DNA from: Gemmata massiliana
GTDB taxonomy: Bacteria > Planctomycetota > Planctomycetia > Gemmatales > Gemmataceae
Reading direction: 5' to 3'
Assembly: GCF_901538265.1 (NCBI RefSeq)
Contig: NZ_LR593886.1
Location: forward strand, 2,836,843-2,900,842
Length of the DNA stretch: 64,000 nucleotides
Each line of letters opens with the position of its first letter. Position 1 is the first letter of the stretch. Of this stretch, positions 3,199 to 6,156 are shown piece after piece. A program made the translations under genes and the position numbers. The notes under the pieces are model-generated. The model ran no database searches and was not told the origin of the DNA. It was given only the letters and a program-made list of their open reading frames with translations.

Positions 3199-4081
3199 TT
3201 TATTGTTGATGTTTAACATATAACATTTGCGTGGCTTGCTTCTGGCGGTCGACTGCGATCTTATGATTGTTTGCTTTATGACGCACTCGTTGCCGCATCA
3301 CAGCGCGCCGCAAGGGGCAAGAGGTTGCCCGCCTATCCGATGTTCAGGCTCTTCAGGTATAGCCGCGACCTGCCTTGCGCTTAAGTGCCATGCCGCCACG
3401 ATAACGGTTCCCGCCCGGCAAATCACGTAATTGACTGGTGGGCTATCTTCGAGTTTGGTTTTGCAGCACTCCCAAGGAATCTCCGATGAATGAGTCCGTA
3501 GTCGCTCCCGATCCGGTTGGCCATACGCGTTCTGTATGAAGTCGGCGAACCACGTTGCTCTCGACGTAATACTCGAAGCCCGCGGACTGCACGAAATCAG
3601 CATATTTTCGCGTCGGCGACACCCGACCGTGACAGTTGACCGGCGAACCAGTGGACCGGGAGGTGGCCTGCGAACTTGGGCGTGTGCGAGCAGTCCCGGG
3701 CCGCACAGCCCGCTTGGCGACCGGGCCTCCGACGGCCGCTAACTATTCGCCATTCGAGGTGGGAGCGGAGACCAGGATCCTTCTTCCTTCGCGCAGAGTA
3801 TGCTTCGCGAACCATGTTTAAGATGAACTTTACGCGTCGTGAAGCCGACCGGCTGGCATGCAGCTTGCAATACAGCCAGCCAGCTGGCCGTTTTCTGCAT
3901 GATTGTTGTGACTGATAAAAAACGTTATCATTCCCTAATTAACGAGCGGCGGATTGGTGAGTCCGCCGCTCGTTTGCCGACCAGGGCGCGAAAACGCTTG
4001 ACAGGTTCGGGGTTTTTGTTGCAATCTAATTTATGTCGAATCAATACGTTGTGGTTAAATCGTGACAAATTATACTTATAT
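3199..4081. other. Gene-poor region with degraded coding-like minus-strand sequence
   Basis: No intact gene is supported. Between about 3,300 and 3,750 the minus strand has protein-like stretches (KYADFVQSAGFEYYVESN) that change frame, suggesting an old unrecognised pseudogene. From 3,890 to 4,081 the sequence becomes AT-rich. A TTGACA hexamer lies at 3998-4003, but the nearest -10-like hexamer is poorly spaced, so no promoter is called. Confidence 0.4.
3942..3973. repeat. Perfect 12-bp stem-loop, possible bidirectional terminator
   Basis: The arms ACGAGCGGCGGA and TCCGCCGCTCGT are perfect complements around an 8-base loop. No long T-run follows on either strand. The ACGAG/CTCGT arm ends resemble the hairpin at 41606-41633, so this may be a terminator style used by this genome. 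Confidence 0.55.
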
Positions 4082-4312
4082 ATGACTAGGCGAGGGTCGC
4101 CGTGTCACCATCCCCGCTAAAGTCTGCACCCGGCTCGGACTCGCCGCGGGCGAACCCCTCGTCTTGGAAGAGGATCACGGTACGCTCCGTCTGATCCCGT
4201 GCGACCACCTGCTCCGCGACGTTCAAGCCGCATTCGCCCCGTACCATACCCCCGCGAATGCCTCGTCGACGAACTCATCGCCGAGCGACGGGCCGAGGCT
4301 GCTCGTGAGTAG
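4082..4312 (+). pseudogene. AbrB/MazE-like antitoxin, frameshifted (vapB remnant)
   Basis: One frame reads VTIPAKVCTRLGLAAGEPLVL, the swapped-hairpin AbrB/MazE fold used by VapB antitoxins. The C-terminal toxin-binding tail continues in another frame as ECLVDELIAERRAEAARE and ends at TAG 4310-4312, so a frame change lies near 4,256. The only plausible start, ATG 4082, is in the frame of the tail rather than that of the DNA-binding part, implying a second lesion near the N-terminus. The stop overlaps the toxin's GTG start, as in classic antitoxin-toxin operons. Confidence 0.7.
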
Positions 4313-4685
4313 CAGTGTTCTCGACGCCTCGGCATTGATCGCGTTCCTGTTCGAGGAACCCGGAGCCGATACCGTAGCTACCCATATTCCCGGGGGCCTC
4401 GTCTCGGCCGTCAACCTGTCGGAGGTGGCGGCACGAACTCTCGAGAAAGGGATGACCCTGGACCGGTTCGATTACGAACTCGGGCGCCTGTCCCTGACTG
4501 TTGTCCCGTTCGATGCGACCCTCGCCAAGGTCGCAGCCGCGCTTCGGGCTCCGACTCGCGCCCTGGGGCTTTCGTTCGCGGACCGCGCGTGCCTCGCCCT
4601 ATGCCTAGTTCGCGGGATCCCGGCCGTCACCGGGGACCGGGACTGGACCAAGGCGAACGTCGGGGTAGAAGTCGTCGTGTTCTGA
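4305..4685 (+). CDS. vapC: VapC-type PIN-domain ribonuclease toxin
   Basis: A 126-residue PIN protein starting at GTG 4305, which overlaps the antitoxin stop (GTGAGTAG). The four acidic active-site positions are all present: D7 (VLDASAL), E40 (NLSEVAAR), D93 (FADRACLAL) and D111/D113 (VTGDRDW). VapC toxins are Mg-dependent endoribonucleases that typically cut tRNA or rRNA. The frame is intact although the antitoxin is not. Its TGA overlaps the ATG of the recombinase gene by one base, so antitoxin, toxin and integrase look like one former mobile operon. Confidence 0.85.
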   Translation: MSSSVLDASALIAFLFEEPGADTVATHIPGGLVSAVNLSEVAARTLEKGMTLDRFDYELGRLSLTVVPFDATLAKVAAALRAPTRALGLSFADRACLALCLVRGIPAVTGDRDWTKANVGVEVVVF

Positions 4686-5283
4686 TGACCGACTTGACCC
4701 CACTCGCGCCTCGTTCGCACCTGAATGCATTCGGCGAACCTGCGCTACCGGCGTGCGTAGCTGAAGCGGGGCCGCACGCACGGTTCGCGTGGGACGAGTT
4801 CTTTTGTGGTGTGCTCGCCAACACGCACACCCGGCGCGCGTACGCCCGGGCTGTGCGCGACTTCTTCGCCTGGCTTGCGCCGTCCGGTACCCAACTGCCC
4901 GATATCACGCCCGGTCTCGTGGGCCGGTACTTCTTCCAGCACCCGGGCAGTATTCCGTCCCGGAAACTGGCTCTCGGCCCTGCGTACCTTGTTTGGTGTG
5001 ATGGTCCAGCGGCACGTCATGCTCCTGAACCCGGTCGCCTCGGTCCGGGTCGAAAGGTACCGCGTGATCGAGGGCAAGACGCCCGAGATCACGGTGCCCC
5101 AGGCCCGGTGCCTGCTGGCCTCGATCGAAACCGGCACGCTCATCGGCAAGCGAGACAAGGCGCTCATCGCCCTGCTCGCCTACACGGGCGCGCGGCGCGG
5201 GGCCGTTGCCCAACTCCGCATCCACGACTTCCGGGATGACGGTACCCAGTGCCTTCTGCGGTTCCGTGAGAAAGGCGGAGTAA
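4685..5283 (+). pseudogene. Tyrosine recombinase/integrase, frameshifted and truncated
   Basis: The N-terminal SAM-like core-binding domain is clear (WDEFFCGVLANTHTRRAYARA, split here as WDEFF and NTHTRRAYARAVRDFFAWL). The frame shifts by one near 4,972, after which SALRTLFGVMVQRHV and ALIALLAYTGARRGAVAQLR follow. The latter contains the box I arginine. After the LLRFREKGG segment the similarity ends abruptly near 5,283, so the downstream HxxR, H/W and the nucleophilic tyrosine are missing. This is a dead integrase linked to the VapBC remnant. Confidence 0.8.
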
Positions 5284-5331
5284 AACATGGTCCCCCTCGG
5301 ATGTGTCGCCTCTGGCCGTCATCGCCGCGCC

Positions 5332-6012
5332 CTAGATTGCTGTCCGAGCAAGAGTGACCACCTGAAGGTATTGTTGTTCATCAAGGGATAAAGCTGCGAG
5401 GTGAGTATTGGTTTCAGCGACGTTCCCTCGATACTTGCGAACGTCAGGGTATCTTGTTACCAACATTTTCCGCGTGCCCAGGGCTTTGCGGTAGTTCTCC
5501 GCCGCCTCTTGAGGCCGGTGCATGTCACGCAGCAGGTGCCCCAAGTTACTGTAGGTGAGGGCCGACTTGCCCCAATATTCTGGGGCGTCGGGGCGCTGGC
5601 GGGTCAGTGGCTTCAGGACGACCAGCACCTCGTTGTACTTCTTTTCCGCCTCCCTGAGTTGGGTCAGGGCGCGGGATAGGTTCGCCAGGTTGATGAGGCT
5701 CGAAGATTGATCGTTCATGTATTCGGGGTTCTTGGGAAACTCCGCCACCAGTCACTCGCGAATGACTAGCCCCTTACGGTAGTGTTCCCCTGCCTCCTGC
5801 AGGCGGTCGAGGTCGCTCAGTAGGACACCAAGGTTCGAGTGGGTATTGGCGAGGAGAACCCGGTACTCGGGGACATCAGCGCACTTAGTCGTCAATTCTT
5901 GGAAGATGGCCAGGCCCTTGAGGTAGTGCCGCTCCGCTTCCTTCATTTGTCCCCTGTTTTTCAGCACTAGGCGGATTCGGAGTATCCCACTGCCCACGGT
6001 TTGCTTGGGCAC
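5332..6012 (-). pseudogene. TPR-repeat fragment with in-frame stop
   Basis: Reading downward from 6012, TPR units follow one another: MKEAERHYLKGLAIFQELT, LANTHSNLGVLLSDLDRLQE, then a TGA within VIRE-LVAEFPKNPEYM, then further units (LINLANLSRALTQL, LTYSNLGHLLRDMHRPQEA, ALGTRKMLVTRYPDV). The two halves are in the same frame, so a single nonsense codon at 5752-5754 separates them. Such tandem TPRs usually form the C-terminus of planctomycete Ser/Thr kinases. No kinase part is present here. Confidence 0.65.
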
Positions 6013-6156
6013 GCCCTTCAGAAAACCGGGGACATTCCCGGATCAAGAGCCGCACTCAACGAAGTCGTCCGACTCGAACCGCTCAACCCGACGTGGAAGA
6101 AATTGCTCGCGAACTTACCACCCCTCCAAATTGCCCCGCCGCCACGGGAGAACTAA
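5977..6156 (+). pseudogene. C-terminal TPR fragment on the opposite strand
   Basis: In one plus-strand frame the sequence AHGLLGHALQKTGD, AALNEVVRLEPLNPTW and KLLANLPPLQIAPPP ends at TAA 6154-6156. This matches the typical end of a Gemmata-type TPR protein (alternating helices, then a proline-rich tail). The N-terminus is missing. It abuts the minus-strand TPR fragment head to head, pointing to a rearrangement between TPR genes. Confidence 0.5.

What the first reader, a model, noticed from the sequence alone, without database searches (positions are those of the whole stretch)
4082..4685. Intact VapC toxin with a broken antitoxin
All catalytic acidic residues of VapC are present, but the antitoxin has at least one clear frameshift (near 4,256) and a mismatch of start frame. 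An active toxin without antitoxin would be harmful, so either VapC is silent, a second antitoxin neutralises it, or frameshifting or sequencing error is involved.
Basis: partly seen in the sequence, partly recalled or inferred. Interest (0 to 1): 0.5.

Follow-up and report, generated by a model that had tools for sequence, protein, structure and literature searches.

The report
Decayed copy of a vapBC operon
One copy of an ordinary bacterial toxin-antitoxin gene pair has lost its antitoxin to mutation while the toxin gene is still readable, which is unsurprising because the same chromosome carries two intact, nearly identical pairs.

Summary
The window lies in a 10.1-Mb single-contig chromosome, in one genus with a genome named Gemmata sp. 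IIL30. At 4062-4685 is a vapB-vapC operon. VapC (4305-4685) is a full PIN-domain toxin with its four acidic residues and a confident VapC fold. Its AbrB-type antitoxin is broken, but not quite as described: the native start is the GTG at 4062, the ATG at 4082 is incidental, and the two lesions are an in-frame TGA at codon 8 (4083-4085) and a one-base loss near 4253. The integrase gene that begins at vapC's end is broken too (frame change near 4971-4978, last third missing), so decay is likelier than a sequencing slip. The same chromosome holds two intact vapBC copies (VapC 95% and 91% identical over 126 aa) and a more distant intact one; IIL30 has an intact VapB. Of 64 homologous loci, 61 keep an adjacent antitoxin ORF; this is the only full-length vapC without one. 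Best reading: a duplicate operon that lost its antitoxin, tolerated because near-identical antitoxins act in trans and/or because VapC is poorly translated without vapB translation; that tolerance step is inferred. Known kind (solitary toxin, degenerate TA locus); low interest.

The parts
4000..4061 (+). leader/promoter region shared with the other copies; contains a TTGACA motif (TTGACG in IIL30)
   Evidence: Conserved in the alignment with two own-genome copies and IIL30, but the consensus scan found no full sigma-70-type promoter (0 found, 0.3 expected in shuffles). 12 window-unique changes in 63 columns.
4062..4312 (+). vapB pseudogene (AbrB/MazE-type antitoxin): GTG start 4062-4064, native stop TAG 4310-4312; broken by an in-frame TGA at 4083-4085 and a one-base loss near 4253
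   Evidence: Alignment with three intact relatives; AbrB model TIGR01439 E 3.9e-06 (26.5 bits, just under its cutoff of 28.3) and PF04014 E 5.4e-05 (23.5 bits, just under its cutoff of 24.7) on the body read from 4086; own-genome VapB search hits it in two pieces with 1 TGA.
4305..4685 (+). vapC, PIN-domain toxin, 126 aa, intact; GTG start overlaps the native vapB stop by 8 bases
   Evidence: PF01850 E 6.7e-15; profile match to VapC30 (4xgq) E 3.8e-05; model pLDDT 96.5; Foldseek VapC structures. A single-sequence PDB search found nothing at E 0.1.
4199..4312 (+). 37-codon ORF (GTG) whose last 18 codons are the VapB C-terminal tail in its native frame; probably chance residue of the pseudogene
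   Evidence: ORF list; tail identical to that of own-genome copy a.
4685..5297 (+). tyrosine recombinase (integrase) pseudogene; start overlaps the vapC stop (ATGA); frame change near 4971-4978; last third missing
   Evidence: Five relatives of 323-378 aa align in frame +2 up to window 4978-5071 and in frame +3 from 4971 to 5279-5297, stopping at residue 206-252; PRK01287 XerC-type E 1.1e-11 on the second piece.

Best explanation
The locus is a decaying duplicate of a multi-copy vapBC toxin-antitoxin operon. The antitoxin gene has been knocked out by two mutations, and the integrase gene behind it is broken as well. The toxin gene is still open because little mutation has accumulated since the split from its nearest copy, so its intactness needs no special cause. 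The cell tolerates it because two intact copies elsewhere in the chromosome make almost the same antitoxin, which should bind this VapC in trans, and/or because the vapC start, which overlaps the end of vapB, is poorly used when vapB is not translated. Shown here: the lesions, the intact copies, the toxin's fold and residues. Inferred: neutralisation in trans, loss of translational coupling, harmlessness.
For: vapB carries a nonsense codon and a one-base loss, while copy a, copy b and IIL30 are intact at both places. The adjoining integrase is split over two frames and truncated. The own genome has copy a (VapC 95%, VapB intact), copy b (VapC 91%, VapB intact) and copy d (VapC 52%, VapB intact). 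The VapB C-terminal tail of copy a is identical to that still encoded here, and VapC w and a share 120 of 126 residues. Window-unique changes are denser in leader plus vapB (24 of 306 columns) than in vapC (7 of 373; Fisher p 0.0003), a pattern that copies a and b do not show and that is reversed in IIL30. For 6 random point changes the chance of no stop in vapC is 0.92, so an open vapC is expected. Of 64 non-redundant homologous loci, 61 have an antitoxin-like ORF of 82-184 aa ending -7 to +38 bases from the vapC start; the exceptions are this locus and two with partial vapC. Coupling of toxin to antitoxin translation is described for Kis-Kid (PMC3920265, passages).
Against: With the leader left out, the vapB-versus-vapC excess is weak (12 of 243 against 7 of 373, p 0.053), and a clump of leader changes at 4051-4068 may be one event. 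The w-a pair shows purifying selection on vapC (dN/dS 0.196; 6 of 17 changes nonsynonymous, P 0.005 if neutral), so vapC may have been kept; on the window branch alone 2 of 6 is not significant (P 0.083). A GAGG six bases before the vapC GTG could allow independent translation. M. tuberculosis VapB antitoxins are reported not to neutralise non-cognate VapC (PMC7354431, passage), though those pairs are far more diverged than these copies (recalled). No expression data.
Confidence: 0.77

Rival explanations
1. Assembly or sequencing error: the antitoxin is intact in the living strain.
For: The one-base loss abuts a run of C, a common site of long-read errors (sequence; error tendency recalled). 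Only one assembly was available.
Against: A second, independent lesion is a substitution to a stop; the integrase beside it has a further frame change and a truncation; the other three vapBC copies in the same assembly read cleanly.
Confidence: 0.08
2. VapC has been kept as a deliberate solitary toxin controlled in trans by the other copies (a shared-antitoxin network), with selection keeping vapC open.
For: Full-length VapC with conserved acidic residues; low dN/dS between w and a (0.196); window-unique changes concentrated outside vapC.
Against: The w-a dN/dS includes the time before the lesions and the branch of copy a; on the window branch 2 of 6 changes are nonsynonymous, P 0.083, and an open vapC is expected by chance with so few changes. 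No conserved solitary vapC of this family was seen in 64 loci.
Confidence: 0.1
3. A residual antitoxin function persists: the 37-codon ORF 4199-4312 yields a mini-antitoxin carrying the toxin-binding tail, or the AbrB body is fused in frame to VapC.
For: The 37-codon ORF keeps the 18-residue VapB tail in native frame and overlaps the vapC start; the AbrB body is open into vapC.
Against: Both are automatic results of a single one-base loss; the ORF's first 19 codons are not VapB sequence; no start signal was identified for either; time since divergence from copy a is too short for retention of the tail to be informative (dS 0.11 in vapC).
Confidence: 0.04

Closest known systems
VapBC type II toxin-antitoxin modules with AbrB-type antitoxin (Shigella flexneri VapBC 3tnd, Rickettsia felis VapBC2 3zvk, Caulobacter VapBC1 5k8j)
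   Same: PIN-fold toxin with D-E-D-D acidic residues, antitoxin gene upstream and overlapping, AbrB-like N-terminal domain in the antitoxin (the AbrB type of those three antitoxins is recalled)
   Different: Here the antitoxin gene is a pseudogene with two lesions; sequence identity of VapC to those structures is 12-24%
Solitary or orphan toxins and degraded TA loci (terms of PMC3874152; counts in marine genomes in PMC12654330, where VapC is among the commonest orphan toxins and Planctomycetota are listed)
   Same: Toxin gene without a linked cognate antitoxin gene
   Different: Here the wreck of the antitoxin is still in place and intact near-identical copies exist in the same chromosome; those surveys define orphans by homology search only (passages)

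Membership tests
VapC toxins (PIN-domain ribonucleases) | PIN domain of about 120-140 aa | tested here: met
   PF01850 E 6.7e-15, residues 5-117; fold match to VapC structures
VapC toxins (PIN-domain ribonucleases) | conserved acidic residues of the active site | tested here: met
   D7, E40, D93 invariant in 27; D111 column D in 24, E in 3. That these are the catalytic set is recalled from the VapC literature; structures of Shigella VapC D7 and D98 mutants are listed
VapC toxins (PIN-domain ribonucleases) | Mg-dependent RNase activity and growth arrest | not testable with these tools
   needs expression and assay
functional VapBC module | intact antitoxin gene upstream of and overlapping vapC | tested here: not met
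   in-frame TGA at codon 8 and one-base loss near 4253; 61 of 64 relatives meet this
functional VapBC module | antitoxin neutralises toxin and represses the operon | not testable with these tools
   no binding or expression data
solitary toxin / degenerate TA locus | open toxin gene without an open cognate antitoxin gene next to it | tested here: met

The most novel reading that the evidence does not exclude
The decay has left a minimal antitoxin: a 37-codon ORF (4199-4312) that retains only the VapB C-terminal toxin-binding tail, overlaps the vapC start, and could neutralise VapC without a DNA-binding domain, turning an autoregulated pair into an unregulated toxin-inhibitor pair.
Probability: 0.03. 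Interest if true: 0.45.

Novelty: new member of a known kind. Interest (0 to 1): 0.15.

Why it matters
It is a clean snapshot of how a toxin-antitoxin operon is lost in a genome that carries several copies: the antitoxin can go first when a near-identical antitoxin is made elsewhere. It offers a natural test of cross-neutralisation between recent VapBC duplicates. It is not a surprise to a specialist.

Tried and rejected

Programmed frameshifting: rejected as sufficient, because the nonsense codon lies upstream of the shift and the three close relatives have no shift.

Firm synteny with IIL30: only partly supported. DNA similarity runs from window 3817 to 4891 (80% over 1088 columns), but the upstream MauE/DUF1573-like gene is only about 30% identical, so I do not claim orthology of the whole neighbourhood. 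In IIL30 the integrase behind vapC is also cut short; a different recombinase follows.

A sigma-70-type promoter: the scan found none. PADLOC gave no match for VapC or VapB. A weak NCBIfam hit of VapC to Sul1 (E 0.032, 14 bits against a cutoff of 600) is chance. A single-sequence PDB search gave nothing; the profile search gave two.

Literature: no paper held all of Gemmata, toxin-antitoxin and VapC, nor all of Planctomycetes, toxin-antitoxin, integrase and VapBC. Papers were seen as passages only: PMC7354431, PMC10453824 (not used in the argument), PMC3920265, PMC12654330, PMC3874152. Others were seen only as search listings. PMC3326315 was not held.

Full report
What is there. The window is G000:C1:2836843-2900842 of a 10,135,216-base single-contig genome. 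A genome of the same genus, G009, has a contig of the same length (565,681) and matching range as Gemmata sp. IIL30 scaffold00006, so the host is taken to be a Gemmata or close kin (inference). At 4305-4685 lies vapC: GTG start, 126 aa, PF01850 E 6.7e-15. In an alignment of 27 homologues D7, E40 and D93 are invariant, and the D111 column is D in 24 and E in 3. The AlphaFold2 model has mean pLDDT 96.5, and Foldseek ranks Shigella VapC (3tnd, E 7.4e-07) and other VapC structures at the top; 49 matches have E up to 0.001. A profile search of PDB sequences gives VapC30 (E 3.8e-05) and PAE0151; a single-sequence search gave none.

The antitoxin. A DNA search of the same genome found two further copies, at 8,788,203 (88%, 'copy a') and 1,155,614 (83%, 'copy b'). 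Aligned with them and with IIL30, the window's vapB starts at GTG 4062-4064, reads in the AbrB frame, meets a TGA at codon 8 (4083-4085), and later loses one base near 4253. The other three have open vapB frames ending in a TAG that overlaps the vapC start by 8 bases. The one-base loss puts the AbrB body in vapC's frame, one open stretch of 199 codons from 4086; no start for such a fusion is apparent. It also leaves a 37-codon ORF, 4199-4312, with the VapB tail in native frame.

Is it more than chance or error? Two lesions of different kinds hit vapB. The integrase gene whose ATG overlaps the vapC stop is also broken: five related recombinases (323-378 aa) align in frame +2 up to window 4978-5071 and in frame +3 from 4971, ending at 5279-5297, that is at residue 206-252, so the last third is missing. 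A sequencing error would have to strike several times in 1.2 kb of an assembly whose other three copies are clean. Decay is far likelier, though only raw reads would settle it.

How unusual is it? I collected 66 homologous vapC loci from 95 genomes of the family and from genome contigs plus the window locus, 67 records; three pairs are duplicates, leaving 64. 61 have an antitoxin-like ORF of 82-184 aa ending -7 to +38 bases from the vapC start. The three without are the window, L084 (only residues 62-124 of VapC matched) and L085 (vapC open for only 66 aa). The window is thus the only full-length vapC (62 of 64 are at least 120 aa) lacking a full antitoxin ORF. The sample is limited to relatives found by conserved peptide patterns or by protein search.

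Rates. Counting columns where one copy differs from the other three, which agree: the window has 24 in 306 leader-plus-vapB columns and 7 in 373 vapC columns (Fisher p 0.0003); copy a 6 and 7, copy b 12 and 16, IIL30 9 and 26 (p 0.022 in the opposite direction). Without the leader the window counts are 12 of 243 against 7 of 373 (p 0.053). A dense clump at 4051-4068 may be one event. VapC w-a: 17 differences in 378 bases, 120 of 126 residues the same, dN 0.0223, dS 0.1136; 6 of 17 nonsynonymous is unlikely under neutrality (P 0.005), but that includes the period before the lesions and the other branch. On the window branch alone, 2 of 6 are nonsynonymous (P 0.083), and six random changes would leave vapC without a stop with probability 0.92. 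So the open vapC is no evidence of use.

Why the cell tolerates it. Copies a and b encode intact VapB (84 aa from the aligned ATG); their VapC proteins are 95% and 91% identical to the window's over 126 aa. The 18-residue tail ECLVDELIAERRAEAARE, in the position of the toxin-binding end in VapB proteins (recalled), is the same in copy a and in what remains here. It is therefore probable, but not shown, that copy-a and copy-b antitoxins bind this toxin. Against this, M. tuberculosis VapB proteins are reported as specific for their own VapC (PMC7354431, passage), though those pairs are much more diverged (recalled), and the same review describes cross-neutralisation in other families. A second route is low translation: vapC starts inside the end of vapB, and coupling of toxin to antitoxin translation is described for Kis-Kid (PMC3920265, passage). 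A GAGG six bases before the GTG leaves independent initiation possible. Eight PIN-family genes are found in this genome.

Verdict. A real, recently decayed antitoxin beside an intact VapC, in a genome with intact near-identical copies. Orphan toxins, VapC among the commonest, are abundantly reported, also in Planctomycetota (PMC12654330, passages), and 'solitary toxins' are a named category (PMC3874152, passages). Ordinary; interest low.

Noticed in passing
window 4685-5297; G000:C1 1153869, 3099809, 8789469; L043:3797-4819: All four vapBC copies of this family in the genome have a tyrosine-recombinase gene within about 1.6 kb, and 25 of 70 locus records examined (duplicates included) have a recombinase hit in the flanks held, suggesting vapBC-recombinase cassettes that move together in Planctomycetes and relatives.
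   Followed up: partly
L005:1806-1940 and L043:3590-3777: Copy a and IIL30 share a stretch of sequence between the vapC remnant region and a downstream recombinase that the window copy lacks, seen by eye in the alignment and ORF translations; it looks like a second element inserted after vapC.
   Followed up: no
G000:C1:1153138-1153509: Another PIN-domain gene (43.6 bits) lies about 2.5 kb upstream of vapBC copy b, beside a recombinase.
   Followed up: no
window 5332-6055 (minus strand): TPR-like reading frames on the minus strand are split over more than one frame just after the integrase remnant, as if another gene there is broken too (judged by eye).
   Followed up: no
L085:2607-2930: In a Methylorubrum MAG the antitoxin ORF begins like a FitA/RHH-type protein and carries the same VDELLAERRGEA tail as the AbrB-type VapBs, hinting at exchange of DNA-binding domains on one toxin-binding tail.
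   Followed up: no
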